Shown: one piece after another, positions 21,334-63,478 of the stretch
Layout of the letters: every line of letters starts with the position of its first letter
Numbering within the stretch: position 1 is the first letter of the stretch
Source: Perkinsus olseni
Lineage: Eukaryota; Perkinsozoa; Perkinsida; Perkinsidae
Length of the DNA: 64,000 nt
Direction of reading: 5' to 3'
Assembly: GCA_013115135.1 (NCBI GenBank)
Contig: JABANP010000200.1
Location: forward strand, 24,317-88,316
Position numbers and translations under genes: made by a program
Notes under the pieces: generated by a model
The model's database searches: none
Seen by the model: the letters and a program-made list of their open reading frames with translations, nothing else
Told to the model about the DNA's origin: nothing

Positions 21334-21353
21334 TCAATGCCATTGAGTCAATG
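21334..21353. repeat. fold-back triplet (TCAATG)
   Basis: TCAATG, C, CATTGA, G, TCAATG. The uninterrupted form CTCTCAATGGCGCG occurs at 24342 and CTCTCAACGGCGCG at 25301; gain here is 14 bp. Confidence 0.95.
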
Positions 21354-21806
21354 GCCTGACAGTCGCGAAGGGTTCTGATCATCTGTTGAGGGCCTCAACA
21401 GAACCCCATCAGAACCCCGACTCAACTTGAGGCTAATAACATTTCTACTCTACACTTCCGTAGTTGTCACGTCGCCGCATCCGTTGACTACTGCGGTGAT
21501 GCAGCTGTATATACTACCGTTAAAGGTGCTCAAGTAACAGGATCTGATTCGGGTTCCGCTTTCGCCGCTCTCAAGTGGTTATTGTGAAGCAGCGTAGGCT
21601 AGTTCAGGATGGGGTTTTGTCGAAGCCGCCGGGTAATCAAGTACCGGATCGAGCAGACACACCCATCAAAGTTTCCGGTAAACTCTGCTGAATGGATGAG
21701 TCTATACCATTCGCAAGCTTACTCGGTGGGTGAGGCCGACGTGCCGACCCTCCAAGATATGACATCAGCGAGTAAAGGCAGCAGTTTGATGGTAGGGACG
21801 AAGTAG

Positions 21807-21826
21807 GCCCTAGTAGGGCCGCCCTA
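21807..21826. repeat. fold-back triplet (GCCCTA)
   Basis: GCCCTA, G, TAGGGC, C, GCCCTA. Exact. Twelve bases from the next triplet. Confidence 0.95.
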
Positions 21827-21837
21827 CTCGACCCTAT

Positions 21838-21857
21838 TCAATACTATTGAGTCAATA
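21838..21857. repeat. fold-back triplet (TCAATA)
   Basis: TCAATA, C, TATTGA, G, TCAATA. Exact in all three units; the second spacer base does not match the flank rule. Confidence 0.9.
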
Positions 21858-22516
21858 GGGAAATCAAGTCGGCGAATAGAAGGTCAGTATAGCGGCGGAA
21901 CTCGAATGGGAAGCTCATTTTGGATGATGAGGCTACCAATTCGGTGATTGAAAACGACAATGCCGCGACAGGCGTCACTACTGTCGGTGACAGTTCAGAC
22001 AGTGCCAGAAGGCAGTGTCTCCATGTGAACTGCGGCCCTCTACTCCTTGAGAGCGGATATGCTCTAGCCATACTGGCCCAGCATATACTTTGCGGTATGT
22101 CAATGGTCGGGGGATAGTGTCTGCCTCGAGTTGGTGTATGAACTGCGAGCTCGGATGAAGTCAGGCCCAGACGCCCGGTGTGCCGATGTCACTCCCGAGG
22201 TCAGCTCGTCTGTCTCCCTGCTGTCTACAATCGGCCCCCTCTAGATATCACTATATCCGGTCGTCGGCACAGCAAATACAACGCTGAAGGTCTTCTTTTC
22301 TCTCCGTGTACTACTGTGCTATTGTTGTACATGTAGATGTTGTTGTTCTTTGAAGATAAGCCCCGTGAGAAGGCATTAGTTGTGTTAATTTGCAACGGTT
22401 AGTGGCGCGAACTTCATGCGTGCGACTTGACTACCAGGGCGGAGATGATCGATGCTTGTATAGCCAAAAGAATTCAGAACTCGAGAACTATTCTCCTTTG
22501 CCTTACACCGGCCTTA

Positions 22517-22536
22517 AGCCGGCCCGGCTTAGCCGG
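22517..22536. repeat. fold-back triplet (AGCCGG)
   Basis: AGCCGG, C, CCGGCT, T, AGCCGG. Exact, both spacer bases follow the flank rule. Confidence 0.95.
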
Positions 22537-22649
22537 GGGAGGAACCGCATCAAACAACACTTGCCTTGCGTTGTTTGGTTACAGACACCCCCTGGAAGAT
22601 CTCCTTGTCCATCCTAGTTACCTTGTGACACAGGGCTTGTGATTTTCAA

Positions 22650-23437
22650 ATGAGCAACTCCACAATCAAGCTTCGCTTTAGCTGGCTCCACCGCGGGATT
22701 CTCTTGTTGGCCTACACCGCAGTGATGGTGGTTTCAGACGAATCCTACACCGTTGTTGCTGACCACCCTCCGGGTTGCAATGGTGGCCCCGGTTCAGCAA
22801 GCACTTCTAATGACATCGAGATCCTCTAGACGGTACCTGCGTCTACATGATGGGTGGGCTGAACTCCGATGGAGGAAATGCACGGAGTATCGGGATGCTC
22901 ATCAAATCCAATCTACCCGATTCAGAACTAGGTGACTATGGTACCTTGAAGTTACAGTGGAACATAGTAGAAAGCGATACCAGCCCTACAGCTTTCAGTA
23001 TAGACAGTGCGAATGTTACTCAGCTTAGCCTCGGTACCGATGAAGTCTTCCTTCGGTTGGCTCTCACCTCGAATGACATCGCCGGCATCTTTGACCACGA
23101 GGGAAAATTTGTTATGAAGATAAGTTCTCATGTCCTTGCTTACTTCAACGAAGCTCTCCACGAGCATGCGAATCTGGCTACTGCGTGGCACTATCTCGAA
23201 GGTTCTGCTGATGATAGTGGATTCAGCCTCTACTCCCCTCTTGTCAGGGCCGACGCTGTAGCTTCGGCTGGACATTCCTACTCGGTAAGGCATGCTCTGG
23301 TTCTCACCAGGCTGTCTCACGACAGCTATCACATCCGTTTCAGCTTCGGAGCTGAGGGTACCTACGTGACTTCAGAGGGGGTGGAGCGGTCCTTCAATAT
23401 TGATAAGAATATCGTCGAAGGTGCTCTGTATTATTAA
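22650..23437 (+). pseudogene. family S member S2, frameshifted
   Basis: Close paralogue of S4 at DNA level from ATGAGCAACTCCACAATC to the terminal stop. The leader reads SWLHRGILLLAYTAVMVV, then the DHPPGCNGGPGSAS block. At 22827-22829 the frame meets TAG: the S4 sequence ATCCTAAATGGTACC is here ATCCTCTAGACGGTACC, two bases longer. Downstream the reading frame is open and highly similar to S4 to its end (VEGALYY). The break is either a young null allele or a sequence error; the rest shows no decay, so inactivation would be recent. Confidence 0.75.
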
Positions 23438-23550
23438 TACATTTTGTAGAAGCCATCGTTGCATGGTCTCAGTTGGGAGTTTCTTCTCCTGATTCATCAG
23501 TTAGGCATATTCAAGTTCTTAAATGCCGTATAAACCTTCTCATTAGTTTC

Positions 23551-23570
23551 TCGAGCGGCTCGAGTCAAGC
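23551..23570. repeat. fold-back triplet (TCGAGC)
   Basis: TCGAGC, G, GCTCGA, G, TCAAGC (one mismatch in the last unit). The matching place after S4 (about 30850, TTTCAAGCC) lacks it; gain 14 bp. Confidence 0.9.
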
Positions 23571-23809
23571 CAGAGGGAGACCTTTCTACCAAGCAGTTCA
23601 CGTTGATTAGAATCAACCATACCAGGTAGTTAAAGAGTCTTGGCTACTTGGGGTGGCGCAAGTGTTAATATGGCTCCCGCACCGTCCCTTTTCTAGTCCC
23701 TCTGGCTTCGTTGCCATACCGCTGAGTAGTATTGCGTTTTCACAGTCCACGGTCCGCAGGAGCTGAGGTGAGCGTCAATGCAGCGGAAGAGTAACGTCCG
23801 TAAATCCGG

Positions 23810-24060: not shown

Positions 24061-24064
24061 ATCT

Positions 24065-25825
24065 TAATTCAACTCTTTGCTCGAAACCAGCTGACCCTTT
24101 TGTAGCTTGAAGAGATCTGCCTCAGCCACTAACGGCCCTCACTCTATCCAGTGATTGAGGCGACGAAAGTGTTGTAGTGACTCACCGACAATCTCCTCTT
24201 CAGTAACCTTGGCCTTGTCGCCATTCCGCTGAGTATTGTTGCGTTCTCACAGTCCACAGAAGCTCATGGGAGCGGCGACGAAGCAACGAAGAAGCCTTTC
24301 GAAGAAGCAACGTCTTTGCCTCACTCGTCTTAAGATTACTCTCAATGGCGCGATAGTTGTTGCCTCACTCGTCTTAAGATAATCTTAAGGGTGTGCCTTT
24401 TTTCCGAAAACGCGAAAACGTTTCCTTTCCGGAAATTTCCACTGGAAATATCTGGAAATGAGCGGAAATGATGGAAACACTAAATTTTTGCGCACGCCCT
24501 GACGGGCGCGGAGAATTGTTGACCAATCCTTGGTGACTTGCTTTCTTGCGCCATTTCTCAACGCACTAAAGAGCGGAAACATTATGGAATTACCTCCCCA
24601 GTGACCGCTTACCTCACCTTCTACCTGCTGAACACCAGTCATGGCACATGGTAGAGCACCTGGGCACTGCCCAGTAGGCATCGGGAGGATGTTGATCAGC
24701 CCTTGGTCACTCGCTCTCTTGCTCCATTCCTCAACGTACTCGAGCATGTGAGTACGCAAGTAATTGTAAGTTATTCTTTACTTAAGTTAACTTAAGTGAT
24801 TGTAAGTTTGCTGGACACCCGAGTCCAATCGACTCGGTAGTACCGAGTCGGTACGAGTCGGTACACAGAAGAAGTATCGCAGAAGTCGGTACACGCAAGT
24901 CAACGCATAGGCCCAAAGGCCGAAGACTCTTCGGAGCTGAAGACTTATTGTCCGCCACCAAATGATAGCGCCCACCAAGAAAATAAGTGCCAGCTTTGGC
25001 GGAGTTGCGCGAAGACGTAGATCATCCACGGTGGATGATTTGCGGCAGATCTTCGTCCTGTCCTTCTATGAGGAGTTTTATATTATAAACCACGAAAAAA
25101 ACAGATCTCATGCGAAAATCGGTAAAAATGGCCCAGTGTCGTAAATTTTCTTCACTTGCGCGAAGAAATGAAGCCACTCTTCTTCGTGCATACATGTTTC
25201 CGGAAATTTCCACGTCGTATATTTCCATCGGAGATTTTCGGAAATTTCCGGGAGGAAAAATCGCACAAAATGGAAACAGCACTTAATAAGATTACTCTCA
25301 ACGGCGCGACAGTCGCGAAGGGTTCTGATCATCTGTTGAGGCTAACAACACTTATGCTCTACACTTCCGTAGTTGTCACGTCGCCGCATCCGTTGACTAC
25401 TGCGGTGATTGTGCTATGAAAGGTGCCCAAGTAACAGGATCAAATTTTGCTTTCACTGGCGCCACTTTCAATTGATCATTTTGATTCGCAGTTTGTCAAG
25501 CAACGCAGACCCGTTCAAGGTGAGGCCTGGTCCGAGCCGCTTGACTCAAGCGGTTACTCAAGCGGCTTGAGTAACCGAGTATCGGATCGAGCAAACACTC
25601 CAATGAAAGTTTCTCGTAGACTGTGCTATATGGAAGAGTCTATGCCACTCAGAAGTCAGCAGATCAGCGAGTAAAGACAGCATTTCGGCGGAGGGTCGAA
25701 ATAGGAAAATCAAGTTGGCGAGTAGAAGAGGTCAGTTCAGCGGCGGCCCTCGAATGGGGAGTTCATTTTGGCGGACAAGGCTCCCTAAGAAGCATCTGTC
25801 CGCGACGTGGGAGGATTTGTGGTGA
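24065..25825. other. array spacer, partly homologous to 21.1-22.6 kb
   Basis: No gene. Contains the recurring CTCACCGACAATCTCCTCTT and GGTTCTGATCATCTGTTGAGG blocks. A distinct AT-richer part (24380-25290) has repeated GGAAATTTCC-type stretches near 24425-24480 and 25195-25260, possibly an inserted repeat. Dense palindromes lie at 24370-24385, 24780-24800, 24834-24853 and 25546-25595. Confidence 0.5.
24834..24853. repeat. fold-back triplet (TCGGTA)
   Basis: TCGGTA, G, TACCGA, G, TCGGTA. Exact, and followed by one more CGAGTCGGTAC. Confidence 0.95.
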
Positions 25826-25829
25826 CCCA

Positions 25830-26835: not shown

Positions 26836-26989
26836 GAAGGGCGGCATGCTCCCACATAGCGGGGGCCCGCAACCCGGTGAGTTGAAGCGAAGCGTTCCGA
26901 TGGTGACCCCTGTCTCCTTGTAGAAACCGGATCTCTTATTTCGTTTGCGATCATGCTCGGGCCGAACTGGCCCAACCAATACCTTGCGG

Positions 26990-27009
26990 TATGTCTGACA
27001 TACTATGTC
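26990..27009. repeat. fold-back triplet (TATGTC)
   Basis: TATGTC, T, GACATA, C, TATGTC. Exact. The homologous CGGTATGTCAATGG at 22093 lacks it; here an additional 21-bp direct repeat follows. Confidence 0.95.
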
Positions 27010-27505
27010 AGTGATCACTGCGGTAGGTCAGTGATCAAGGGGATAGTCTTTGCCTCGAGCTGGAGCTTGACCAGCGACCTCGGAGGAAGTCAAAGCCAGT
27101 CGCTTATCGTGTGTTGATGCCGCTGGTGCTCTCTCTCCAGATGTTTCTGAAGCAATTCCTTGGCAAAGCAGGTACAACGTCAGAAGTCTCTTTACTCTTA
27201 AAGTAGCGTGCGGTGGTCAACTGCTATTATTATTCAGTAAGGGCCCCGTGACAAGGTCTCGGATGTGTTCATATGCATCGACTAGTGGCGCGATAATCAC
27301 ACGTGCGGGGGTGCCATCACGATCGGAGGCAATCTATTTTTGCGTAGTCGAAAACAGTCCGAACAGTCCGAGAGGTATGCTCTCTATGCCTCCCACCGGC
27401 TCCAAGCGATGAGAGGAACCCTAGCGAACAATTTACTTTGTGTTTCAGTTGGCGGCTTCAACTAGGCTACAACTGGAATGATCCTAGTTGCTTCGTGGTT
27501 CTGAA

Positions 27506-28248
27506 ATGACCAGCTCTACTATCAAGGTTCGCTTCAACTGGCTTCACCGTGGGATTCTATTGTTGACGTTCACCGCAGTGATGGTCTTATCGAACGAATC
27601 CTACACCGTTATTGCTGACCATCCTGCGGGTTGCAACGGTGGCCTAAACGGTGCCTGCTTCTACACGATGAATGGGCTGAACTCCGATGGAGCTAAGCAA
27701 CAGGGTATGGGTTTGCTTATCAAATCGAATATACCGGATAGTATCGGGCCGATACGGAACTAGATGACTATGGTATCTTGAAGTTACAGTGGAACATAGG
27801 AGAAAACGATACCAGCCCTACAGCTTTCAGTATGGAGGCTTCTGGCAACACTCAGCTCAATTTTGGTGACGAGGACATTTACTTGCGATTGGAGAAGGTG
27901 CCAGAGAAAAACATCAGCTACAACGACAGAAGACCCTGTGATGCTCGTATGCTCTATGCTTCTCACGGAGTTGCGAACCTTCTTACGCCGTGGTACTACA
28001 TCGCAGGTTCTGGTGACACCAGTGGAATCAACCTCTACTCTAACACCGTCAAGACATCCTCTGCCGACCATTCCTTCTCAACTAAGCAGGATATAAACCT
28101 AATCAAGCTGATTCATTACAGCTATCACATGCGTTTTACTTCCAGAACCGAGGGTACTTATCGGACTTATGCGGGCGTACAGCGGCCATTCGTTGTTGAA
28201 AAGGTTGTAGTTGATGGGGTCTTCTCTCTAGTACCTCCAAGTTCATAA
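27506..28248 (+). pseudogene. family S member S3, broken by a 14-bp fold-back insertion
   Basis: Starts MTSSTIKVRFNWLHRGILLL with the same leader as S4, then DHPAGCNGG and a shortened loop lacking the GPGSASTSDDIEIL segment of S4. At 27735-27754 a palindromic 14-bp gain relative to S4 (30228-30245) shifts the frame and gives a stop at the TAG near 27763. From 27778 the original frame is open to 28248 (KLQWNIGENDTSPTAFS onward) and differs from S4 by many replacements, including a VPPSS end instead of VEGALYY. Thus an older, diverged member inactivated by one small event. Confidence 0.75.
27735..27754. repeat. fold-back triplet (CCGATA) breaking S3
   Basis: CGGATA, G, TATCGG, G, CCGATA (one mismatch in the first unit). 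S4 has CCCGATTCAGAACTAGG; gain 14 bp. Confidence 0.9.
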
Positions 28249-28259
28249 GGTTTCAGCAG

Positions 28260-29955: not shown

Positions 29956-29958
29956 CAT

Positions 29959-30747: not shown

Positions 30748-31344
30748 TACATTTTGTACAAGCCACCTCAGTTGGCAGTTCTTCTGGTTCATCATCAGTG
30801 AGGCGCATTCGAGCTTTTAAAGCTGTATTGAGCTTCTCATTCATCTTTCAAGCCAGAGGGGGACGACCCTCCGCCAAAGCAGTTCACAATAAATGAGTCA
30901 ACCCTTACGATATGAAGTAGTTATAGTCTTGATTACTTGGGATGACGTATGTGTTGCCAACACAGTGTTGGTGTGTCTCAGCGACCATTCTCTTTCTAGT
31001 CCCTCTGGCTTCGTTGCCATTCACCTGAGTAGTATTGCGTTTTCACAGTCCACAAGAGCTGACGTCACAGGCAAAGCTGCCGAAAGAGTAACGTCCTTGC
31101 CTGATCAGCAATGAGTTTCCCCTCACAGGTTGATGAGACTCCACTGTACCGTTGTTGTTGGTAATCCACGATTAGCTCTCGTAACCTGAAACTCTAACCC
31201 TGGTTTCCCGCCTTGTGTCTGCGTCCACACAGGCACTCAAAAGCATTAGGACTTTCGAAATTTAGGAGAGACGTTCCGAGTCGACACTTGCGGAATGCAC
31301 GTCGGTTCGAACCCTTCACTCGACAAAAGTTCTCTCACAAAGTT

Positions 31345-45211: not shown

Positions 45212-45805
45212 AAACAATCCTAAATCCCAACAAAGGTCCCGAGTCTACACTACTAACTCCATGATCACTGCTACCAAAGTTATTTTCGAATTATTCCGAT
45301 TCTAAACCTTGCTGCTCCTCCTCACTGCGCGGAAGGTCTAAGGAAGGGACGATGCCCATGCGAAGCTCAGCTGCTTGGTCTCCCACTTTGTTGATTCTCT
45401 AATGCCTATTTTCGATTTATTAGACTTGGCCACTTAAAAGAGGGCACTGCTCCCATTCGCTATTTCTCTCGAAGGAGTTAGTGCACCATACTTGTAGTTA
45501 CACCACGCCGACGCTTTGGGCGTGGACGTGGACTCCTCACCGATATCCCGTGTAATATCTCTTGTCAAGTCATCTTACCGTAAGATTCTTACGGATGAAC
45601 TTTGTTAACCGATCGAGTAACCTCATTATAATCATTATGATGAAACGATGATTGTCATATAATTTCGACGTCGTAGTCAGCCTGGTGGAGGCCGTATTCT
45701 TGAAATCAGACCTGCTTATATGAGCTATATGAGCTTTCCATATACCAGACAAGATGAGATCTCAAATGCTTAGGCGGTTGGGTTGAGTCAATACTAAGTT
45801 GTAAA

Positions 45806-45825
45806 CCCAGGCCCTGGGTCCCAGG
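45806..45825. repeat. fold-back triplet (CCCAGG)
   Basis: CCCAGG, C, CCTGGG, T, CCCAGG. Exact. Lies a few bases from where the other array units have a different triplet (ACCAAG). Confidence 0.95.
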
Positions 45826-46692
45826 GTGCCAAATCAACCTTCACTAGCGACTTAGCTGATGCCCCGCTGCTGCACCTCTGTGTCGAATGTTCCCCACACA
45901 GCCGGCTTCACCGATGGTATGTGGCTCCGTCCATACCTTCAGAAGAGTCTCTGCAAACCGGAGAAATGAGAGAAACTCGTATCATTCGTTCGGTTGATTC
46001 GAGAGTCGCGAACTCTCTTAGAAGTTGGAAAGAGTAACTCATCGTGAGTTCGGGTTCGTGGAGCCAAATGCGCGTTGAGTCAGAGCGCAAAGGTCGGCTG
46101 CAGATAAGCCCCGTCATTCATATCGTCCAGAAGTAACCCGCTATGGAGGCACGGGGAGGGGTGAGATTTCTTCACTGAGGTAGGATATCGTCAAAACCAG
46201 AGTGCCGACCATCGCAGCTCTCGTCTAGTATTTTTAACTCATTAGCATCCGTCGTAGTCACCGCCACTTGAGCACCCATTAAGCTATTCAGAGGTACACA
46301 ATTGAGGTCCCCAGTTTGGGCTCTGACGTCTTGCAAATGACAAGTATGCTCATAAGACTATTCTGACATCTGGTAGCGTGCGGGTCCACGGGGAACCGTT
46401 CACGGCCCTTCGCGGTGGGAAGTTCGTCAGTGACGAATCGTCACGTGTGGCATGATAGTCGGCACACTTATGCTTCCTAGCTATTTGCAGGCCTGCGGGC
46501 ATCGTGCTTGAATCAAGCGCCTTGGTGGTCGAATTAATAATCCGGGTTCGCCGCTTTCCATTCACCATCTCCGAAAAAGCGTCTGAACTGCAGGGTTCTC
46601 GAGGGCGGGCGCCGAACAGTAGCGCTTACTCATGCTGGCCCAGCACTGCTCAGCAGTGCTGCTGCTGGATGGCGGCTTATCTGCATTTTTCT

Positions 46693-46712
46693 TCGAGGTC
46701 CTCGAATCGAGG
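46693..46712. repeat. fold-back triplet (TCGAGG)
   Basis: TCGAGG, T, CCTCGA, A, TCGAGG. Exact. Confidence 0.95.
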
Positions 46713-46728
46713 ACTTTGCGTCAGGACC

Positions 46729-46748
46729 ATAAGGACCTTATGATAAGG
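46729..46748. repeat. fold-back triplet (ATAAGG)
   Basis: ATAAGG, A, CCTTAT, G, ATAAGG. Exact. Confidence 0.95.
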
Positions 46749-46820
46749 TATTTGTTCTCAGAAAGGACGATGAGAATATCGCACTTCTGGCCCTCCTTAG
46801 TAAGAGAAAGAGCTCCTTTC

Positions 46821-46840
46821 TTGAGGACCTCAAGTTGAGG
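46821..46840. repeat. fold-back triplet (TTGAGG)
   Basis: TTGAGG, A, CCTCAA, G, TTGAGG. Exact; 26 bp before the edge of the duplicated HPR2 fragment. Confidence 0.95.
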
Positions 46841-46866
46841 TGCTCACGGTCCTCCGTGAGCAGGAT

Positions 46867-47272: not shown

Positions 47273-47956
47273 ACTCACCGACTTGAACCGGACGAACTGC
47301 GTGAGTGTGAGTTCGAAGTCCAGCGCCGAGCACCGGCTTAGTGAGGCTAGGAAAGATTAGTTGAGGATAGCTTGAGAAGGGTTAGTTACATCAAGCCTTA
47401 ATGAACTTATAGTTCATGAAGCCAGGAATGTAGTACTCAGATATGAGGGTATGAGCCACTTCCTTTCCTCTCGCCAGAATCTGGCTGATTCAATCAGGTA
47501 CCACGATGCGGTTGCTGTGCACTACAACGGACACTGGATTTTCCGACAGTGTGCCAACCACGTGCATCATCTCCGAAACTAGAACTATCTCATACCGAGG
47601 CTGAACACTCTAAACCTCTGTCGGTGACTGCAAGGGCTCTCCCATATCATGTGATATGAGGGCTCCCTCAATGAGTTCGGGTTTCCCCTCATATAAAACC
47701 TGCCTAGCTGGGAACTTGAATGTTCCTGCCCAGATCGACTTCAAGAATGAGCAGCGCGCAGGGGAGAAGGTTCGATGCCGCCTACAGTGAGACTTCCGTA
47801 CGAGGAAGAGATATGCTTCTTGGAGGCTCGTACGTCCAGCCTCGCCCGCCTGCACGAATTAGAAAGATCAATTTCTGCTCAATACCATTCAGAAGTCTGT
47901 TCGACGGGCCGCTCGTCACGGGCGAGGGCCTCGACGCGAGGCCGTTATGCCAACAC

Positions 47957-47976
47957 TCGAGGTCCTCGAGTCGAGG
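47957..47976. repeat. fold-back triplet (TCGAGG)
   Basis: TCGAGG, T, CCTCGA, G, TCGAGG. Exact. The related spacer at 28883 reads ACACTCGGGGACTTC; gain 14 bp. Confidence 0.95.
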
Positions 47977-48796
47977 ATATCACACTAGTGGATAAAGACA
48001 GCAGATCGGCGGTAGGGTCGAAATAGGGACATCAAGTTGGCGAATGAGGACTCCTTATTCGCCTCCTCATGGAGGAGATCAGTCCAGCGGCGGGACTTGA
48101 GCGGGGACTTCAATTCCGCAAAGAAGGCTCCCAATTTCATGATTAACGCAAACAACTCCGCCGATGAGGGCTTCAACCCCGGGAATCACACTTTGACCTG
48201 AGGTTCTATCAAACATGAAACTTCACACGGTGCTTTAACGCAATCGAACCTTCCAGATAGCGCAACTCTACGCGACCGTTGGAAATCAGTTCCGCAGTTC
48301 ACATGTGACATGACATGTTACATACTTTCTTAATTTCTCAATCAGGATGCGTAGACCAACCCTGAGTTACCTAGAGTAGGCGCACGTATCGGGTCTGCGA
48401 GTGTCCCTCCTTCCTGGCCGTGTGTAACACATGCTATGTTGCTAGCTGGTTCGGAGGACCGTTTCCATGCGCGCAGCTGGGATCATTTGAGCCCTACATG
48501 ACTCGACGCGAACCTCCCTCAGAGTCTGCGGGACTCTCAGCGGGACTTCCGCTCCCGCTGCGGGAACCGAGCCGTCCCATCTGTCGCCTTCGCGCATGCG
48601 TGCGCCAGGTGAATGAGGCAATGAACCGGACCAGTTGCCGACTTGGTCGAGTACTGCTACCGTCCACTCTTCTCTCATGCTTCATCTATCATTGGCGATG
48701 TAGTGTCGGTAATTGAGGTTAATAGACTCTCCCTCCGGCCCGGTGTTATTCCGGTGGAGTGAAGGGGACAAGGACAGGGACAATGGTGGGAAGTAT

Positions 48797-50743: not shown

Positions 50744-51393
50744 AGACGAATTACTCACTAAAGGTCACAGTCTGCACTACTATTTCCGTGGTCACTGCTA
50801 CCAAAGTTATTTTTGAATTATTCCGAATCTGAACCTTGCTGCTTCTCCTCACTGCGCGGAAGGTCTAAGGAAGGATGGAGCCCATGCGAAGCCCAGCTGC
50901 TAGGTCCCCCCTTTGTTGATGATCTAATGTCTATTTCCGATCCGTCATACTTGGCCTCTTAAAGAAGGGCACTGTTCTCATTTGCCACCCTCTCGGAGGA
51001 GTTAGTGCACCATACTTGAAATTATACCTCGCGGACGCTTTGAAGTCTGCGAGCGTGGACTCCTCGCCGATATTCCATGTAATATCCCGTGTCAAGTCAT
51101 CTTACGGATGAAGTTTATTAACCTATCGAGTGATCTGATTATAATAATGATGATAAAACGATAATTTCTACATAGTTTTGACGTCGTAGTCAGCCTGGTG
51201 GAGTCGGTATTCTTGAAACACGACCTGCTAATATGAGCTATATGAGCTATTAATATACCAGGAAGACGATATCTCAAATGCTTGAGAGGTTGGGTTGAAA
51301 GGGTCAATATCGCAAACAGAGCTCCAAGAGTGATACGCTACCACCTACTACCGGAGCAACGCGACCGTCCGCATCGGTATTTTAACCTACGGT

Positions 51394-51413
51394 ACCAAGA
51401 CTTGGTAACCAAG
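51394..51413. repeat. fold-back triplet (ACCAAG), shared with 56719
   Basis: ACCAAG, A, CTTGGT, A, ACCAAG. Exact and present in both near-identical array units, so older than their duplication. Confidence 0.95.
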
Positions 51414-51490
51414 TTAACCTTCACTAGCTATGCAGCTGATGTCCCTCTGCTGCAACTTTATGTCGAATGTCTTCACACGGCCGGCTTCGC

Positions 51491-51510
51491 CGATGGACCA
51501 TCGGCGATGG
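51491..51510. repeat. fold-back triplet (CGATGG), unit-specific
   Basis: CGATGG, A, CCATCG, G, CGATGG. Exact. The other unit has the plain GCCGATGGTATG at about 56814; gain 14 bp with otherwise matching flanks. Confidence 0.97.
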
Positions 51511-51794
51511 TATGTGCTTCGTCCATACCTTCGGCCCGAAGGCTCCGGCAAACCGGAGAGATGAACTCGTATTGTTCTGTTCGGTAGATTTGACACTCGC
51601 GAACTCTCTCAGAAGATAGAAAGGGTAACCTATTGTGAGTTCGGGCTCGTGGTTCGGAGAGCCAGATGCGTCTGGGTCATGGCGCGAAAGCCAACAGAAA
51701 GTTGGTTGCAGATAACCCCCGTCATCCATATCATTCCAGAGTAACCAACCATAGAGGCACGGGAGGTGAGAGGGCTCCACCGGGGTCGGGTGTC

Positions 51795-51814: not shown

Positions 51815-52466
51815 TAACCAGGGTGCCGACCATCGCAGCTCTCGTCTAGTATTTCCTACTCCTTAGCATACGTCATAGTCACAGGGGGTCCCATCTCGCC
51901 AATGACAAGTACGCTCATAACACTTTACTGCCGCGCTCGTTGACCTAGGCGCCTAGGTATTCGCTTCCCCACTCACTCTTATTTTTACTGTGCCCCTGTA
52001 GGTGCCACGGGGGGGCCATTTTGCGCATGCGTGTGTGCATGCTTCTGGAGACTCGCTCTCTCCCTCTGCCTCTCTACTCGTTTTTCTGGGGTTTTCTACT
52101 TCTCTCCCCCAATTCTCACTTTCCTCCATAGGTGACACGGGGGACACTGCGCATGCATGTGTACATGCGTATTCAGATCGATATGTTCGATCCCGCTATT
52201 ATGACTCATCACTCGTAACCATACTGAATTGAGGGATGTTTGCTTTCGTTTGGAATGTTGCGATTCAGTACGATTGTCACGCTTCCTAATGGTTGAGGCG
52301 ACTGCCTCTGTGGCTAACCTACAGTTATCAGCAGTCCCGGACTTGAGTGGTCCGAGTGACCTGGCTACAATACTGTCAACTCGTATCATGCATGATGCCC
52401 GGTATTTCTACTCGTCCTGGCGGAAGATCTCTGTCAGAGCTGTTATAAAAAGGTCATTGTATTGTA

Positions 52467-52486
52467 CTCGGAGTCCGAGTCTCGGA
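52467..52486. repeat. fold-back triplet (CTCGGA), shared with 57791
   Basis: CTCGGA, G, TCCGAG, T, CTCGGA. Exact. Followed directly by an ACACAGAG-A-CTCTGTGT palindrome. Confidence 0.95.
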
Positions 52487-52742
52487 CACAGAGACTCTGT
52501 GTCACTCTGCGACAGAGTGGGAGAGCAACCAACTGTACTCACAAGTTTTGCTTGACAGATCTTATTCGGAGCGCTGGTTACACAGTCTCGTCGAATCAAG
52601 GAAACTCCGTGTAAAACGGGGAACCTGCTGCGAACGTCTGAGGATATCGTTCTCAGAGCAGCCTCTCGGCGCCGTGAAATGCTCCAGAGATCTTCAGAAA
52701 TTTTCCGGAAATTTGAACTTTTAATTACTCCTATCTAGCGGC

Positions 52743-53062: not shown

Positions 53063-53656
53063 GCTCCCTGAAGTTTCCTGAAGCTAACCGAGTCGCCCAG
53101 TACTCACATTTCTCTCAAGCATCTCTCTCAGTTGTTCCTAGGCCCACGGCACCCTGGGTCTAGTATCCGTACGGAACGTACATAATGGGCAACCTGTAGG
53201 CCAGTTACCTGCTTCCTTTCCATCCTCCATTCAGCCCGTTTCGGCGATTTTATTGAGAGGCTCACCGTGTCGCTTCTGCGAGCAACAATCCTGCACAAGG
53301 GATCCCTTATTGGGACCGAATGAAAAATTGCGCTCCACCTGATTACAAGAACTGAATTTCAGCTCTTCAGGCCCACAGGAAGGCAACACGCCATGAGGGC
53401 TAGGCGGGAGGTTCTCACCCACTGGGAGCCAGATGCCCACGGTGGAAATATCGAGCACGCGTGTACCAGAGATATTCCTTGAATCGGTACGGATAGGTAA
53501 GTCTGCCAGAGCTCGGTGTTATGATTCCTTCGTCCACCAACCTCAGCTGCGTCGCTCAGGCCGACTCAGCGCTCATGCGACTCTGCCGTGGCATAGTCGG
53601 AGCCTCTGAGTTACAATCGGGTCTGAGTCCTCGGGCGGGTCAGAATCCTAGGGAGG

Positions 53657-53676
53657 TCCTCTGAGAGGACTCCTCT
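53657..53676. repeat. fold-back triplet (TCCTCT), shared with 58981
   Basis: TCCTCT, G, AGAGGA, C, TCCTCT. Exact. Confidence 0.95.
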
Positions 53677-53687
53677 CCCCTCCTCGC

Positions 53688-53707
53688 TAGACAGTGTCTA
53701 GTAGACA
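53688..53707. repeat. fold-back triplet (TAGACA), shared with 59012
   Basis: TAGACA, G, TGTCTA, G, TAGACA. Exact; 11 bp from the previous triplet. Confidence 0.95.
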
Positions 53708-54444
53708 CCGCAGTTGAGCTTCAACTGCAGGTGATCATCCAGGAAGCGAAGCAGGGGTCGAATCAGCTCACTTGAATCTCCTCTTCCCTATTCCACTATC
53801 TGACCGTGACACAGGGCTCGGGGTCGGCCTGCTAGCTAATATAGGCTAACCCTCCGGATGATTCCCTTGCTCCATTGCTGCTGCGTATCCACATAGTCCT
53901 TGAGGGGCAGCCAAGGGACTGTCCCTGTGCGCCTCTACCCACTGTGCGTCCGGTTCTCCCAGCAATCGTGGAACTAGTCACGCTATTGAAAATTCGTTCA
54001 CCTTATCTCTGAATTGAGGTCAGTTTCCTCTCTTTTGAGTCCTGTATTGAATAGCCACACTGTGTTCAGTTACAGTGCACATGGGTGCAGACCCACAGGA
54101 CGGCAACTCCACCTCAAGTTGCGGTCCGGAACTGTCCCCCCTCCAGAATCGAGTCCCTCCGTGACACTAGGACTAAGTGAACAGACAAGTCGGCCTGGCT
54201 CATCTTCTCTCCCTCTCCTCTGGAAGACTCTCTGGCCTGTCTTAATTATACAACGTACCTGTTTCGCTGAATGAGCATTTGGTATTTTCCACAGCCGGAG
54301 GCATGAAGCGTCTGAAACCTACCGCGGCTAGCCGATAGCTTTGTCTCTTCTCCTGCCCCCTCGGGCGAGTTCTATAAAGGTAATCGCTTGCCATAATGTA
54401 GATACGATGCTGCTTCGCCAGTTATCAATTCTTGACAGGTCACA

Positions 54445-56067: not shown

Positions 56068-57036
56068 AGACGAATTACTCACTAAAGGTCACAGTCTGCA
56101 CTACTATTCCCACGGTCACTGCTACCAAAGTTATTTTTGAATTATTCCGAATCTGAACCTTGCTGCTTCTCCTCACTGCGCGGAAGGTCTAAGGAAGGAT
56201 GGAGCCCATGCGAAGCCCAGCTGCTTGGTCCCCCCTTTGTTGATGATCTAATGTCTATTTCCGATCCGTCATACTTGGCCTCTTAAAGAAGGGCACTGTT
56301 CTCATTTGCCACCCCTCTCGGAGGAGTTAGTGCACCATACTTGAAATTATACCTCGCGGACGCTTTGAAGTCTGCGAGCGTGGACTCCTCGCCGATATTC
56401 CATGTAATATCCCGTGTCAAGTCATCTCACGGATGAAGTTTAATAACCTATCGAGTAATCTGATTATAAAAATAATGATAAAACGATAATTTCTACATAG
56501 TTTTGACGTCGTAGTCAGCCTGGTGGAGTCGGTATTCTTGAAACACGACCTGCTAATATGAGCTATATGAGCTATTAATATACCAGGAAGACGATATCTC
56601 AAATGCTTGAGAGGTTGGGTTGAAAGGGTCAATATCGCAAACAGAGCTCCAAGAGTGATACGCTACCACCTACTACCGGAGCAACGCGACCGTCCGCATC
56701 GGTATTTTAACCTACGGTACCAAGACTTGGTAACCAAGTTAACCTTCACTAGCTATGCAGCTGATGTCCCTCTGCTGCAACTTTATGTCGAATGTCTTCA
56801 CACGGCCGGTTTCGCCGATGGTATGTGCTTCGTCCATACCTTCGGCCCGAAGGCTCCGGCAAACCGGAGAGATGAACTCGTATTGTTCTGTTCGGTAGAT
56901 TTGACACTCGCGAACTCTCTCAGAAGATAGAAAGGGTAACCTATTGTGAGTTCGGGCTCGTGGTTCGGAGAGCCAGATGCGTCTGGGTCATGGCGCGAAA
57001 GCCAACAGAAAGTTGGTTGCAGATAACCCCCGTCAT

Positions 57037-57056
57037 CCATATGATATGGACCATAT
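57037..57056. repeat. fold-back triplet (CCATAT), unit-specific
   Basis: CCATAT, G, ATATGG, A, CCATAT. Exact. The other unit has plain CATCCATATCATTCC at about 51725; gain 14 bp. Confidence 0.97.
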
Positions 57057-58066
57057 CATTCCAGAGTAACCAACCATAGAGGCACGGGAGGTGAGAGGGC
57101 TCCACCGGGGTCGGGTGTCGTCAAGACTTGATGGTCAAGTAACCAGGGTGCCGACCATCGCAGCTCTCGTCCAGTATTTCCTACTCCTTAGCATACGTCA
57201 TAGTCACAGGGGGTCCCATCTCGCCAATGACAAGTACGCTCATAACACTTTACTGCCGCGCTCGTTGACCTAGGCGCCTAGGTATTCGCTTCCCCCACTC
57301 ACTCTTATTTTTACTGTGCCCTGTAGGTGCCACGGGGGGCCATTTTGCGCATGCGTGTGTGCATGCTTCTGGAGACTCGCTCTCTCCCTCTGCCTCTCTA
57401 CTCGTTTTTTCTGGGGTTTTTCTACTTCTCTCCCCAATTCTCACTTTCCTCCATAGGTGACACGGGGGACACTGCGCATGCATGTGTACATGCGTATTCA
57501 GATCGATATGTTCGATCCCGCTATTATGACTCATCACTCGTAACCATACTGAATTGGGGATGTTTGCTTTCGTTTGGAATGTTGCGATTCAGTACGATTG
57601 TCACGCTTCCTAATGGTTGAGGCGACTGCCTCTGTGGCTAACCTACAGTTATCAGCAGTTCCGGACTTGAGTGGTCCGAGTGACCTGGCTACAATACTGT
57701 CAACTCGTATCATGCATGATGCCCGGTATTTCTACTCGTCCTGGCGGAAGATCTCTGTCAGAGCTGTTATAACAAGGTCATTGTATTGTACTCGGAGTCC
57801 GAGTCTCGGACACAGAGACTCTGTGTCACTCTGCGACAGAGTAGGAGAGCAACCAACTGTACTCACAAGTTTTGCTTGACAGATCTTATTCGGAGCGCTG
57901 GTTACACAGTCTCGTCGAATCAAGGAAACTCCGTGTAAAACGGGGAACCTGCTGCGAACGTCTGAGGATATCGTTCTCAGAGCAGCCTCTCGGCGCCGTG
58001 AAATGCTCCAGAGATCTTCAGAAATTTTCCGGAAATTTGAACTTTTAATTACTCCTATCTAGCGGC

Positions 58067-58333: not shown

Positions 58334-59240
58334 GGGTCTCAGCCAATAATCGAGTACGAGTGGCTTTCGAGACTCTCGAATCGGGAGCTCCCTGAAGATT
58401 CCTGAAGCTAACCGAGTCGCCCAGTACTCACATTTCTCTCAAGCATCTCTCTCAGTTGTTCCTAGGCCCACGGCACCCTGGGTCTAGTATCCGTACGGAA
58501 CGTACATAATGGGCAACCTGTAGGCCAGTTACCTGCTTCCTTTCCATCCTCCATTCAGCCCGTTTCGGCGATTTTATTGAGAGGCTCACCGTGTCGCTTC
58601 TGCGAGCAACAATCCTGCACAAGGGGTCCCTTATTGGGACCGAATGAAAAATTGCGCTCCACCTGATTACAAGAACTGAATTTCAGCTCTTCAGGCCCAC
58701 AGGAAGGCAACACGCCATGAGGGCTAGGCGGGAGGTTCTCACCCACTGGGAGCCAGATGCCCACGGTGGAAATATCGAGCACGCGTGTACCAGAGATATT
58801 CCTTGAATCGGTACGGATAGGTAAGTCTGCCAGAGCTCGGTGTTATGATTCCTTCGTCCACCAACCTCAGCTGCGTCGCTCAGGCCGACTCAGCGCTCAT
58901 GCGACTCTGCCGTGGCATAGTCGGAGCCTCTGAGTTACAATCGGGTCTGAGTCCTCGGGCGGGTCAGAATCCTAGGGAGGTCCTCTGAGAGGACTCCTCT
59001 CCCCTCCTCGCTAGACAGTGTCTAGTAGACACCGCAGTTGAGCTTCAACTGCAGGTGATCATCCAGGAAGCGCAGCAGGGGTCGAATCAGCTCACTTGAA
59101 TCTCCTCTTCCCTATTCCACTATCTGACCGTGACACAGGGCTCGGGGTCGGCCTGCTAGCTAATATAGGCTAACCCTCCGGATGATTCCCTTGCTCCATT
59201 GCTGCTGCGTATCCACATAGTCCTTGAGGGGCAGCCCAGG

Positions 59241-59430: not shown

Positions 59431-60760
59431 CAGGGACTGTCCCTGTGCGCCTCTACCCACTGTGCGTCCGGTTCTCCCAGCAATCGTGGAACTAGTCACG
59501 CTATTGAAAATTCGTTCACCTTATCTCTGAATTGAGATCAGTTTCCTCTCTTTTGAGTCCTGTATTAAATAGCCACACTGTGTTCAGCTACAGTGCACAT
59601 GGGTGCAGACCCACAGGACGGCAACTCCACCTCAAGTTGCGGTCCGGAACTGTCCCCCCTCCAGAATCGAGTCCCTCCGTGACACTAGGACTAAGTGAAC
59701 AGACAAGTCGGCCTGGCTCATCTTCTCTCCCTCTCCTCTGGAAGACTCTCTGGCCTGTCTTAATTATACAACGTACCTGTTTCGCTGAATGAGCATTTGG
59801 TATTTTCCACAGCCGGAGGCATGAAGCGTCTGAAACCTACCGCGGCTAGCCGATAGCTTTGTCTCTTCTCCTGCCCCCTCGGGCGAGTTCTATAAAGGTA
59901 ATCGCTTGCCATAATGTAGATACGATGTTGCTTCGCCAGTTATCAATTCTTGACGAGTCGCAATGATCCAACTAACTATTCTAAGCATCATTTACGCTGT
60001 CCACGCGGAGTTCACGGGTAGGGCGGCGGTCTTCCATGCTACGACGACGAACCTTCGCAATAAAGATGTGAAGGACGCTCATGGCAATCCCGTCCCCTGT
60101 GGCAAATCTCGAGCTAGAGAGACTCTCGGGCTGACGTTGCCTGGTATGGAGGACGGTTCTCTTACTACAAGGGAGCATATCATTATTGCTAAAGACGGCA
60201 ACGTGAGGGTCAAAGCTATTCCAAGCCGCCCCTATCAGTATTTCATGTACACCGACACTCCGAAGGACGTCAAACTTCATCAGTTCTACAACCACCAAGC
60301 TTTCGCCCTCGTCGACAGTACGCCCGAGTTCGAAGCGCAGCGCCTCTACGGTGCTGGGCTAAGTAAAGATGGTTGGACTGACGAAGGCATGACCAATCTC
60401 GACGGCAAGAATTTGCACAGGTGGACCAAGCGTGGGCCACAGGGCCTCGATAAGGCCTCTGGCTTCAATTACACAGCCGTCTATCAGACTTGTATGTACC
60501 CTGATCTTTGGACGTTCTATACCGACTCTGATGAGTCAGCACCTGTGAAGCTGGTCGGGTCCAACTCCTTCTGCAACAAGGCCTTGCAAGTTACAGAGTA
60601 CTCCAACTACCGCACTCTAGATGAAACGCTCACTGTGGAGGACTCTATCAAAGAAGTGCACACCATGTATGGTATCGGGTCTCGCATATTATCTGTTGGA
60701 GAGAGTCAGGAGGTTCCCAAAGTATGTGAAGATCTCCTAGGGGCTCCCTACGTGTGTGAG

Positions 60761-60780
60761 TCTGAAGTTCAGACCCTGAA
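60761..60780. repeat. fold-back triplet (TCTGAA) in family F copy 4
   Basis: TCTGAA, G, TTCAGA, C, CCTGAA (one mismatch in the last unit). Copies 1-3 read GAGTCTGAACGGG; gain 14 bp, frame lost. Confidence 0.95.
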
Positions 60781-61419
60781 CGGGAGTTCTTCGGAGACGG
60801 CCAAGAGGTTGACTGGATACCTTCTGGTAGGAGGATGCGTGGAGCTACAGGAAGCCAGGATATCATCCCGTACTTCGACGTTGCCGAGGGCACTGCGGCT
60901 TATACGTTCTTCCATCACCAATATGAGAGGCGCCTCCTTCAACTGCTCAAATTTGAGTTCCCCAGCAATTGCAACAACACCGGTGGAACATCTGCTCTGA
61001 ACTTCTGCCTCTTCGTCGCCGTCGATGCGACCGTATCGACTTACACGCTGAAGGCAGGGATGACGTTCGTTGATGTGAATGATAAGAACAAGAAGGCTTC
61101 CCTCTTCGTCGCTGTCGTAATCGGCAAAGAACTTGGCAAGAAGGTTCTGAGGTTGGAGGTCGTGGCCCAGGGATCAGTCACTGTGTGGCAGATGGGAGAA
61201 GGAGTCAGCTTAAGTATCGTGGTCTCGGTTCAGGGTAAGGTCTCAGATGATACGGCGCAGCAGATATTTCGAGCTGAGATAAAGATGTCGGTCTCATTTA
61301 ACGTGAACCTCCCCGTGGTCGGAAGCGTCATGGACTGCACTATCTATGCAAAGATTGGTATCACAGCGGCTCCGAACAACGTTATCACGGCCTATGGTGA
61401 GATAGGTAGAAGCATATCC

Positions 61420-61439
61420 CTTCTCTGAGCAGGCTGCTC
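61420..61439. repeat. fold-back triplet (CTGCTC) in family F copy 4
   Basis: CTTCTC, T, GAGCAG, G, CTGCTC (one mismatch in the first unit). Copy 3 reads ATATCCCTGCTCATTGC; gain 14 bp. Confidence 0.95.
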
Positions 61440-61804
61440 ATTGCTGGTGCTGGTGCTGGGGTTAACGTGAAGGGGAACACGCTCAACAACCAGCCTAACA
61501 CGTGGGCTTTCAAGTCGGAGGTATTCTTGACCGCGTGGGTGAACATCCTCGTATGGAGCGACAGCTGGAGGTGGGCTTGGGAGATCTGGCATGCTAGCCC
61601 AGTCTATTTCTGAAGACAATCCCATGATGGGATAGGATTCCCCTCACAACAACTCCTGTCTGACAGGACAGGAGTCCTGTGGCGGTGCCATACCTTTGAA
61701 TTGTTCGGAACCCGAACTATAACGCCTCTTATTAGGCGGAAGATCTGAGAGATGACAAGCCTAGTGCCTCAGGGTGCTCGATCTCTTATTTTGACGCCTT
61801 ATAA

Positions 61805-61824
61805 TCTCTAGTAGAGATTCTCTA
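61805..61824. repeat. fold-back triplet (TCTCTA)
   Basis: TCTCTA, G, TAGAGA, T, TCTCTA. Exact. Confidence 0.95.
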
Positions 61825-62209
61825 CATTTTAAAATAATTTTCACTTGAAAAGACGAGGTATACCATTATCATTCGGCCCCCTACCGAGTTAGGTTTCCGT
61901 ATACGCAGGAAGTACGTGGCTATATTGTTTCATGTAATATCCCTCGTGGTGTGAACTTACCGATGTCGTTTATTTTTCTGTCCCACACTCAGGATAATAT
62001 CCTGGATATTCAATATTTTGAAATCTTGAATCTTACAATCTGCTGTTCAAGTCGGTATCGTTGGGATAGAACCTGTCCAGTCAATCTTTTGAGCCTTGGT
62101 GCACCGGACACTATGTCAGACATTTAAATGTTGGGTTAAAAAAAGTTGAGGAAGATTTGCTATTGATAGATATTCGTATACAGCCAACAGCTGTCTCACA
62201 TACCATGGG

Positions 62210-62229
62210 CTGGGACTCACAGCCTGTGA
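62210..62229. repeat. fold-back triplet (CTGTGA)
   Basis: CTGGGA, C, TCACAG, C, CTGTGA (one mismatch in the first unit); flank rule satisfied. Confidence 0.85.
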
Positions 62230-62332
62230 GAGTCTCTCCCCGTCGAGATTAGCGCTGACCTCGTGAACGGCATGCGAATAACCACCAGCTGTTCCCGAGA
62301 AATTCCGTCTTGATGTAGCCGGGCTGCAGCAG

Positions 62333-62352
62333 CTCGGTAACCGAGCCTCGGT
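62333..62352. repeat. fold-back triplet (CTCGGT)
   Basis: CTCGGT, A, ACCGAG, C, CTCGGT. Exact. Confidence 0.95.
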
Positions 62353-62716
62353 TGGTTGAGCCAAATGCTATCATCGGTCGGGTGATGCAGGTCGGACGCT
62401 TACGCTCACGCCACCCGCCTCGCCATCGCACACACTCGAACCGTCTCGCCCCTTTAGGCGGGACAGCCCCCCCCCTCCGGTAGTACTGGGTAACGGGCCG
62501 ATACCCGCATGGTAGCAAAGAATCTCGAAGGATGATTACCTCCTTAAAGGAGCTCGCGCCAACGCCAAACCTGAGTGTTCATCCGTTGAGTCAATGACAT
62601 TGACCTTGGAGACAACCATTCTCCAGTACAGATTCCTCGATTGGGGTCGAATTAAACGTTGCAATTTGCGTCATGTAGACCGTCACGGTCTGGTTACCTA
62701 AGTCGGTGCCCGACTC

Positions 62717-62736
62717 TCGGGCCGCCCGACTCGGGC
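62717..62736. repeat. fold-back triplet (TCGGGC)
   Basis: TCGGGC, C, GCCCGA, C, TCGGGC. Exact units; second spacer base departs from the flank rule. Another GCCCGA lies just upstream. Confidence 0.9.
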
Positions 62737-62848
62737 GGGTTACCTCCATTCATACTGACACGTTTCGTCCATGATATGTTCCGTTCACGACCTTTTCGTC
62801 CTTGAGCAGATTCTTACACCAGACTCGTCCGCGCTACTTTCGTCCAGC

Positions 62849-62885
62849 TCGGTATTACCGAGTCAGTAACCTGGTTACCGTAACC
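62849..62885. repeat. two nested fold-back triplets (TCGGTA; GTAACC)
   Basis: TCGGTA, T, TACCGA, G, TCAGTA (62849-62868, one mismatch) overlaps GTAACC, T, GGTTAC, C, GTAACC (62866-62885, exact). They are counted as two sites. Confidence 0.9.
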
Positions 62886-63458
62886 AATTTTGATCCAAGA
62901 CTGCTCACCGCCGGCTGCGGTGATCCATGGTGTTTATTTCCTTAATTGTGCGCGGTGTGTCCCTAAGTTGATATCTTTCGTAGATTGCACACAAGCTGCG
63001 CTAGTAGAGCGTGATGCTCAATAATATTAATAACAAATTCCTCTAAGAACCCACTAGATTTGAGTTTGGTACATCAATGACTCACGATACCGGCCACCTC
63101 TCCCTCCCCTACCTGTTACACACCTCAGGATCGATCCGGAGCCTTCAGACTCAACGAGCGGTTTTCGAGCCAGAAAAATCCCACTCAGTATGTTGGTATA
63201 CAGCTGGAGTCAATGTCGAGGTTCTTCTCTCTCGTATAATCGGGTTCGCTCAGTTTCAAGCGGGTCGGTGACCCGCCCAAGCTGCCCACAGTAAGAGGCA
63301 TGTTCCTCTTTTCGGTGAAGACCATGCTCGAACATCGTCCTGAAAACATCAAAGCCTCCGCCCTAGCTGAGCCATCGAGACCTCTACGAGCGGCATTCGC
63401 CGACCCACATGATTCACGCCCATCCAGGAACATCGTTCGGAAACAGTGCCTTCTACGG

Positions 63459-63478
63459 TCCTGGCCCAGGACTCCTGG
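63459..63478. repeat. fold-back triplet (TCCTGG)
   Basis: TCCTGG, C, CCAGGA, C, TCCTGG. Exact, flank rule satisfied on both sides. Confidence 0.95.

What the first reader, a model, noticed from the sequence alone, without database searches (positions are those of the whole stretch)
21334..63478. A recurring 14-bp fold-back insertion: X-n-X'-n-X at 34 sites
Seen directly: 34 places carry a 6-mer, one base, its reverse complement, one base and the 6-mer again; 23 are exact and 11 have one mismatch. By chance an exact case should occur about 0.004 times in 64 kb (12 constrained bases). In nine direct comparisons with a paralogous stretch lacking it, the net gain is exactly 14 bp. The 6-mers differ from site to site, so this is not one dispersed element but a process acting on local sequence. 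I know of no described element or mutational process with this fixed size. Sites lie only in spacers, relics and the two secreted families; I saw none in the conserved genes or left of 21 kb.
Basis: partly seen in the sequence, partly recalled or inferred. Interest (0 to 1): 0.93.

Follow-up and report, generated by a model that had tools for sequence, protein, structure and literature searches.

The report
Scars left by departing hAT transposons
The repeated 14-base insertions are most likely scars left where hAT-type jumping genes cut themselves out of the genome of a shellfish parasite, and their uniform shape makes a countable fossil record of lost transposons.

Summary
In the window X6-n-X6'-n-X6 occurs exactly 33 times; the other 24 loop combinations (0-4) give 0 or 1. 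The single bases are not free. In 78 of 92 distinct exact cases (window plus 200 kb of the same genome) n1 complements the base after the last X and n2 the base before the first X. So the unit is an 8-mer O written O[1-7]+rc(O)+O[2-8], gain 14. With O of 5-12 bases, only 8 peaks. This is what a hAT transposon would leave: 8-bp target duplication, flank hairpins offset by one base, opened to 3' overhangs that anneal over the duplicated 8 bases. O shows the hAT target bias T2/A7. A second class looks like both hairpins opened beyond the duplication and joined. The genome (Perkinsus olseni) holds hAT transposase domains and elements with 8-bp duplications and empty paralogous sites. No site was found filled in one copy and scarred in another (0 of 12), so which element made which scar is inferred. 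The chemistry is known; uniformity, density (about 17,500 exact scars by rough extrapolation) and scarcity of elements are unusual.

The parts
21333..21354 (.). 14-bp scar, O=CTCAATGG, exact
21806..21827 (.). 14-bp scar, O=GGCCCTAC, exact
22516..22537 (.). 14-bp scar, O=AAGCCGGG, exact
24833..24854 (.). 14-bp scar, O=CTCGGTAC, exact
26989..27010 (.). 14-bp scar, O=GTATGTCA, exact
27734..27755 (.). 14-bp scar, O=CCCGATAC, 1 mismatch; two paralogues in the window have 8 bases there, one mismatch from O
30950..30971 (.). 14-bp scar, O=TGTGTTGG, exact
45572..45593 (.). 14-bp scar, O=ATCTTACG, exact; paralogues near 51.1 and 56.4 kb have a single O (0 and 1 mismatch)
45805..45826 (.). 14-bp scar, O=ACCCAGGG, exact
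46423..46444 (.). 14-bp scar, O=TTCGTCAC, exact
46692..46713 (.). 14-bp scar, O=TTCGAGGA, exact
46728..46749 (.). 14-bp scar, O=CATAAGGT, exact
46820..46841 (.). 14-bp scar, O=CTTGAGGT, exact
47956..47977 (.). 14-bp scar, O=CTCGAGGA, exact
51393..51414 (.). 14-bp scar, O=TACCAAGT, exact; shared with the next tandem copy (56718-56739)
51490..51511 (.). 14-bp scar, O=CCGATGGT, exact; the 99% identical tandem copy near 56.8 kb has a single O
52466..52487 (.). 14-bp scar, O=ACTCGGAC, exact; shared with 57790-57811
53656..53677 (.). 14-bp scar, O=GTCCTCTC, exact; shared with 58980-59001
53687..53708 (.). 14-bp scar, O=CTAGACAC, exact; shared with 59011-59032
56718..56739 (.). 14-bp scar, O=TACCAAGT, exact (copy of 51393-51414)
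57036..57057 (.). 14-bp scar, O=TCCATATC, exact; the near-identical tandem copy near 51.7 kb has a single O, so this scar is probably younger than the duplication
57790..57811 (.). 14-bp scar, O=ACTCGGAC, exact (copy of 52466-52487)
58980..59001 (.). 14-bp scar, O=GTCCTCTC, exact (copy of 53656-53677)
59011..59032 (.). 14-bp scar, O=CTAGACAC, exact (copy of 53687-53708)
60760..60781 (.). 14-bp scar, O=GTCTGAAC, 1 mismatch, inside the fourth copy of the PF20525 gene family; three paralogues have a single exact O
61419..61440 (.). 14-bp scar, O=CCTGCTCA, 1 mismatch, same gene copy; three paralogues have a single O (0, 1, 1 mismatch)
61804..61825 (.). 14-bp scar, O=ATCTCTAC, exact
62332..62353 (.). 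14-bp scar, O=GCTCGGTT, exact
63458..63479 (.). 14-bp scar, O=GTCCTGGG, exact
20666..20702 (.). two-hairpin scar (class B), O=AAGTAAAC: O[1-7], rc(O), 7 bases matching the reverse complement of the flanks with one mismatch, rc(O), O[2-8]
25538..25571 (.). two-hairpin scar (class B), O=CGCTTGAG, spacer of 4 bases equal to the reverse complement of the right flank

Best explanation
Each site is the repaired donor site of an excised hAT-superfamily transposon. (1) The element inserted and duplicated 8 bp, O = pXq (inferred for each scar; shown for some elements still in place). (2) At excision the transposase nicks one base outside each end and closes each flank into a hairpin, so the loop is the complement of the outermost base of O (flank hairpins are established for hAT; the one-base loop and its identity are seen directly in the scars). 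(3) A host nuclease opens the hairpins to leave 3' overhangs, at or beyond the far end of O (inferred from the strand geometry and from class B scars; the enzyme is unknown). (4) The left overhang q'X'p' and the right overhang pXq are exact complements because both are copies of O; they anneal over 8 bases, flaps are trimmed and gaps filled (inferred). The product is O[1-7]+rc(O)+O[2-8], a gain of 2x8-2 = 14, wherever beyond O the hairpins were opened. (5) When the overhangs do not anneal, both are kept and joined: O[1-7]+rc(O)+flank-derived bases+rc(O)+O[2-8].
For: Base rule: n1 = complement of q and n2 = complement of p in 78 of 92 distinct exact cases; the geometry expected from 5' overhangs (n1=q, n2=p) in 0 of 92. 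Only an 8-base O peaks: window exact counts for O of 5-12 bases are 2,1,1,26,0,0,0,0. Target bias: T at O2 in 40 of 78 and A at O7 in 29 of 78, p=8e-8; Hermes prefers nTnnnnAn with 8-bp duplications (PMC10368747, passage). One-base-loop palindromes with arms of 8 or more outside the scars: 41, against 14, 16, 15, 15 for loops 0, 2, 4, 6; loop 3 gives 36 and loop 5 gives 18, but these counts include again the one-base-loop palindromes with longer arms, 25 of the 41 having arms of 9 or more. Class B: 9 hits against 1 in the same-orientation control and 0 with loops 0, 2, 3, 4; 8 of 9 obey the base rule; in 7 (6 distinct) the spacer matches rc(flanks) with at most 1 mismatch, of which three distinct ones (spacers 7, 4, 12) are informative and the others have 0-2 bases. 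hAT transposase domains: 21 PF05699 matches, all over cut-off; one ORF of 643 aa with DUF4371 and the hAT dimerisation region. Four elements have the same 8 bp on both sides (C209, C457; C941; C816). The C941 element has two empty paralogous sites, one with O exact and one two mismatches off; the C816 element has four. Flank hairpins in hAT and V(D)J: PMC6900584 (passages). Palindromes and microhomology joining for Ac/Ds: PMC5873905 (passages), PMC1978519 (passages).
Against: No site was found filled in one copy and scarred in another: of 12 paralogous sites of six elements (ten, two), none carries the predicted scar at the element's own O. The nearest case is the C206 element, whose left duplication lies in the right arm of a two-mismatch scar while its paralogue has a single O; its right end was not found. 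Experimental Ac/Ds scars are often varied (28 types among 128 in PMC5873905), though one site in Arabidopsis gave the same footprint in 11 of 17 excisions (PMC1978519); neither paper's passages show a 14-bp product. The apparent uniformity is partly detection bias, since short scars do not reveal themselves. The element ends found are few: 14 exact matches of family 1 and 3 of family 2, one of the 3 (C511) lying in a scar and not at an element. 14 of 92 exact cores miss the base rule at one or both bases, which I put down to decay or chance.
Confidence: 0.92

Rival explanations
1. Replication template switching: a polymerase copies a few bases back from the nascent strand and returns, leaving X-n-X'-n-X without any transposon.
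For: Fold-back insertions copied from local sequence are a known outcome of template switching (recalled). Scar sequence is always local.
Against: It gives no reason for a fixed 8-base unit, for the T2/A7 bias, for one-base loops, or for a duplicated 8-mer at both ends. hAT elements of the same genome duplicate 8 bp.
Confidence: 0.03
2. Excision of another transposon superfamily with 8-bp duplications (for example Merlin, P, Zisupton/KDZ) rather than hAT.
For: Merlin elements are reported from Alveolata (abstract listed, PMC8101967). I did not search this genome for other superfamilies.
Against: Flank hairpins are described for hAT and not, as far as I recall, for these others; T2/A7 is the Hermes bias; hAT domains and hAT elements with 8-bp duplications are present.
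Confidence: 0.04
3. A domesticated hAT-like nuclease (as Kat1 in Kluyveromyces) or a programmed excision step removes elements routinely, so scars are a regular product and not relics of selfish jumping.
For: Kat1 makes hairpin-capped breaks (PMC4763223, passages). Exact scars (57 in 200 kb) far outnumber the element ends that I could find.
Against: A nuclease alone does not duplicate 8 bp; an insertion must come first. No such gene was looked for or identified. Some elements are still in place.
Confidence: 0.05

Closest known systems
Excision footprints of Ac/Ds and Tam3 (hAT superfamily)
   Same: Palindromic (P-nucleotide) insertion centred on the complement of the base next to the transposon, with microhomology joining (PMC5873905 and PMC1978519, passages read).
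   Different: There the footprints are varied and mostly short (28 types in 128; longest P insert 3 nt in Candida; arms up to 20 nt in budding yeast, as reported in PMC5873905). Here a 14-bp product that fits annealing over the whole 8-bp duplication prevails among the recognisable scars.
Hermes transposase chemistry
   Same: 8-bp duplication, nTnnnnAn preference (PMC10368747, passage), hairpin on the flank (PMC6900584, passages).
   Different: Known from biochemistry and structures; here it is read back from genomic scars.
V(D)J coding joints with P nucleotides
   Same: A hairpin opened off centre adds a palindromic stretch.
   Different: RAG hairpins have no one-base offset and there is no target duplication to anneal (recalled).

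Membership tests
hAT excision footprint | 8-bp target duplication flanks the scar | tested here: met
   O of 8 is the only peak among 5-12
hAT excision footprint | palindrome centred on the complement of the base next to the element (one-base loop) | tested here: met
   78 of 92 distinct exact cases obey it at both hairpins
hAT excision footprint | target preference nTnnnnAn | tested here: met
   T2 40/78, A7 29/78, p=8e-8
hAT excision footprint | P nucleotides can run past the duplication into the flank | tested here: met
   class B: 7 of 9 hits (6 distinct) match rc(flank) with at most 1 mismatch; three have informative spacers
hAT excision footprint | hAT transposase and hAT elements in the same genome | tested here: met
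   21 PF05699 matches; 643-aa ORF; four elements with matching 8-bp duplications
hAT excision footprint | same site seen filled in one copy and scarred in another | tested here: inconclusive
   0 of 12 paralogous sites carry the predicted scar; the C206 site holds a decayed scar next to an element
hAT excision footprint | varied footprints at one donor site, as in most Ac/Ds experiments | tested here: inconclusive
   14 bp is the commonest of the 5-40 bp insertions between paralogues (10 of 31 rows); repeated excision from one site cannot be watched here
hAT superfamily (the elements) | catalytic residues intact in the transposase | not tested
   only domain matches were made

The most novel reading that the evidence does not exclude
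In Perkinsus olseni hAT elements are cut out so efficiently, and their hairpin ends joined so uniformly by annealing over the 8-bp duplication, that scars outnumber remaining elements by hundreds to one. The genome would then hold a self-erasing transposon population, or a host excision step that acts almost always and through one repair route.
Probability: 0.3. Interest if true: 0.8.

Novelty: new variant of a known kind. Interest (0 to 1): 0.6.

Why it matters
The 22-bp scar can be recognised without knowing the transposon or having a second genome, so past hAT activity could be counted and roughly dated in any assembly by one script. If the reading is right, hairpin-capped breaks in this protist are opened to long 3' overhangs and joined by microhomology, which bears on which repair enzymes it uses. 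A 14-bp gain shifts a reading frame, and two scars lie in one copy of a gene family here, so the process helps turn gene copies into relics.

Tried and rejected
Other arm lengths and loop sizes: no second peak. Simple duplications (X-X) or short P inserts as a further scar class: the 6-mer direct-repeat spacing scan is highest at spacer 8 (199) with smaller rises at multiples of three (0, 3, 6, 12, 15, 18); 7- and 8-mer repeats rise at periods of 9 and 12, which look like ordinary tandem repeats, so no clear second class. A high-copy short transposon family filling sites in the window or sample: the scans for an 8-bp duplication plus matching ends gave nothing convincing there; a weak candidate at window 15810-17861 is at chance level (2 hits at the right offset against 1 and 2 at shifted offsets). 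A site filled in one copy and scarred in another: sought with joined and single flanks of 11 elements (with sites read), in the tandem arrays of the window and in a repeat that carries the C941 element; none found. Searches were judged from match tables only, and each scored at most 40 candidates. The right end of the C206 element was not in the stretch fetched and the paralogue's right flank has no match on C206. ORF coverage of a stretch does not predict its scar count (rho 0.008), although scars avoid long frames. The family 2 end pattern with one mismatch is not above its control (45 against 38). On re-check, the 8 bases facing the scar at window 22621 differ from O at three places, so that case is weak.
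Full report
What was checked. The window is part of a 61.5-Mb assembly of 968 contigs (C114:24317-88316). A window protein hits Perkinsus olseni proteins, two of them (FOZ60_004630 and FOZ60_004631) on a contig of 88,316 bases, the coordinate at which the window ends. In 264 kb (window plus twenty 10-kb stretches) loops (1,1) give 91 and the next best of 81 combinations gives 3.

The n bases are the key. Writing a site as p X n1 X' n2 X q, I asked how n1 and n2 relate to the flanking bases p and q. In my own working before (not recorded in a call) I had listed the joining geometries of two flank hairpins with a one-base offset; the data fit one of them. n1 = complement of q, and n2 = complement of p, in 25 of 29 each in the window, and both together in 78 of 92 distinct cases in 264 kb; the geometry expected if hairpins were opened to 5' overhangs fits 0 of 92. 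So the unit is an 8-mer O = pXq and the product is O[1-7]+rc(O)+O[2-8].

Size. With O of length 5 to 12 the exact counts are 2,1,1,26,0,0,0,0 in the window and 8,1,0,57,0,0,0,0 in the 200 kb; the expected chance counts at length 5 are about 1 and 3. Counts for 0, 1, 2 and 3 mismatches over 264 kb are 83, 66, 57 and 98. Twenty shuffles of the same sequence gave 0, 1 and 29 for 0, 1 and 2 mismatches in total; the three-mismatch class was not shuffled and I do not use it. The graded decay suggests scars of many ages (inference). By extrapolation the genome holds about 17,500 exact scars (bootstrap over the 20 stretches 8,600-29,200); I picked the stretches on contigs that had come up in earlier calls, so this is a rough figure.

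Comparison of copies. Ten scars have a paralogue with 8 bases in place of 22 (window 22621, 27734, 45572, 51490, 57036, 60760, 61419; L031 2861 and 3416; L011 6592). In eight the paralogue's bases are exactly O, at 27734 one base differs, and at 22621 three differ. In an unselected list of insertions between paralogues, 14 bp is the commonest size between 5 and 40: 10 of 31 rows, 8 of them distinct scars. Two further copies of a repeat, about 95% like the C941 copy, carry one exact scar each that the C941 copy lacks (L032, O=TCATAAGC; L033, O=GTTTCTCG), so some scars are recent.

Target bias. O has T at position 2 in 40 of 78 and A at position 7 in 29 of 78, against a background of about 0.25. 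This is the nTnnnnAn preference of Hermes (PMC10368747, passage read).

A second product. Outside the 14-bp scars, palindromes with a one-base loop remain in excess (41 against 14, 16, 15, 15 for loops 0, 2, 4, 6). Loop 3 gives 36 and loop 5 gives 18, but any one-base-loop palindrome with longer arms is counted again there, and 25 of the 41 have arms of 9 or more. Several come in pairs that share O: O[1-7]+rc(O)+spacer+rc(O)+O[2-8]. There are 9 hits, 1 in the control orientation and 0 with loops 0, 2, 3, 4; 8 obey the base rule; in 7 (6 distinct) the spacer is the reverse complement of the left and right flanks with at most one mismatch, three of them with spacers long enough (4, 7, 12 bases) to be informative; two hits (L013, L037) do not fit. 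Hairpins opened past the duplication and joined end to end predict this.

The transposons. PF05699 finds 21 places, all over cut-off. One locus has an open 643-aa frame with DUF4371 and the hAT dimerisation region, inside an element with ends CAGTGGCGGCGCCA and CAGGAGCGGCGATG and TAGGGCTT on both sides. Two paralogous sites are empty there, one with exactly one TAGGGCTT and one with a form two bases different. A second element of this family has CCTGATTC on both sides and four empty paralogues. Another family ends in TAGAGATGGGCAAA (14 exact matches in the genome, 39 with at most one mismatch, 9 in the reversed control), with two members flanked by matching 8-mers. So hAT elements with 8-bp duplications exist here, and those with near-identical empty paralogues inserted recently (inference).

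What is not shown. No site was seen filled in one copy and scarred in another. In one search ten paralogous sites of five elements were read: eight have the duplication's 8-mer once where the element's flank ends (one base different in two of them; for three of the elements only one flank was used), one diverges before the site, and one is the empty paralogue of C206. The two sites of C941 are empty as well. At C206 the left flank reads as a two-mismatch scar and the element begins right after it, which looks like re-use of a site; its right end was not found. So that this or that family made the scars is inference; that a hAT-type reaction made them is, I think, strongly supported by the 8-base unit, the one-base offset, the target bias and the class B scars together.

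How it compares with print. Papers seen as passages: Ac/Ds in Candida (PMC5873905) describes palindromic insertions centred on the complement of the base next to the transposon and microhomologies, with varied footprints; Ds in Arabidopsis (PMC1978519) describes hairpin opening and microhomology joining, with one footprint in 11 of 17 excisions; Kat1 (PMC4763223) and a review (PMC6900584) describe hairpins on the flank; the Hermes paper (PMC10368747) gives the 8-bp target preference. That the nick lies exactly one base outside the end is recalled for Hermes; [quoted passage not shown] I found no report of a genome-wide uniform 14-bp hAT scar or of hAT scars in Perkinsus in the open library (searches; listings only for nearly all hits). 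Two subscription papers on yeast footprints were not held.

Verdict. A real, sharp and abundant signature; its chemistry is known, its uniformity and number are, as far as I could search, not described. The interest lies in a countable record of excision and in the question why scars so outnumber the elements found.

Noticed in passing
   Followed up: partly
L043 (C206), positions 379-400: A hAT element sits directly next to a decayed scar of nearly the same 8-mer, as if the site had been used twice; the paralogue L062 is empty.
   Followed up: partly
L032 1542-2903: Eleven scars (at most 2 mismatches) within about 1.4 kb of one repeat copy.
   Followed up: no
L008 1270-1316, L016 4275-4319, L021 81-119: Perfect palindromes with one-base loops and arms of 23, 22 and 19 bases; possibly longer hairpin scars.
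   Followed up: partly
window 287-392: A short repeat: 37 of the 43 genome matches listed for window 1-3000 fall here, at 71-81% identity (at most 40 candidates scored); nature unknown.
   Followed up: no
L011 868 and 6592: In one of two duplicated copies a second scar seems nested inside an older one.
   Followed up: no
L048 (C511) 392-413: An exact scar whose letters happen to match the family 2 transposon end, one of only three exact genome matches of that end.
   Followed up: no
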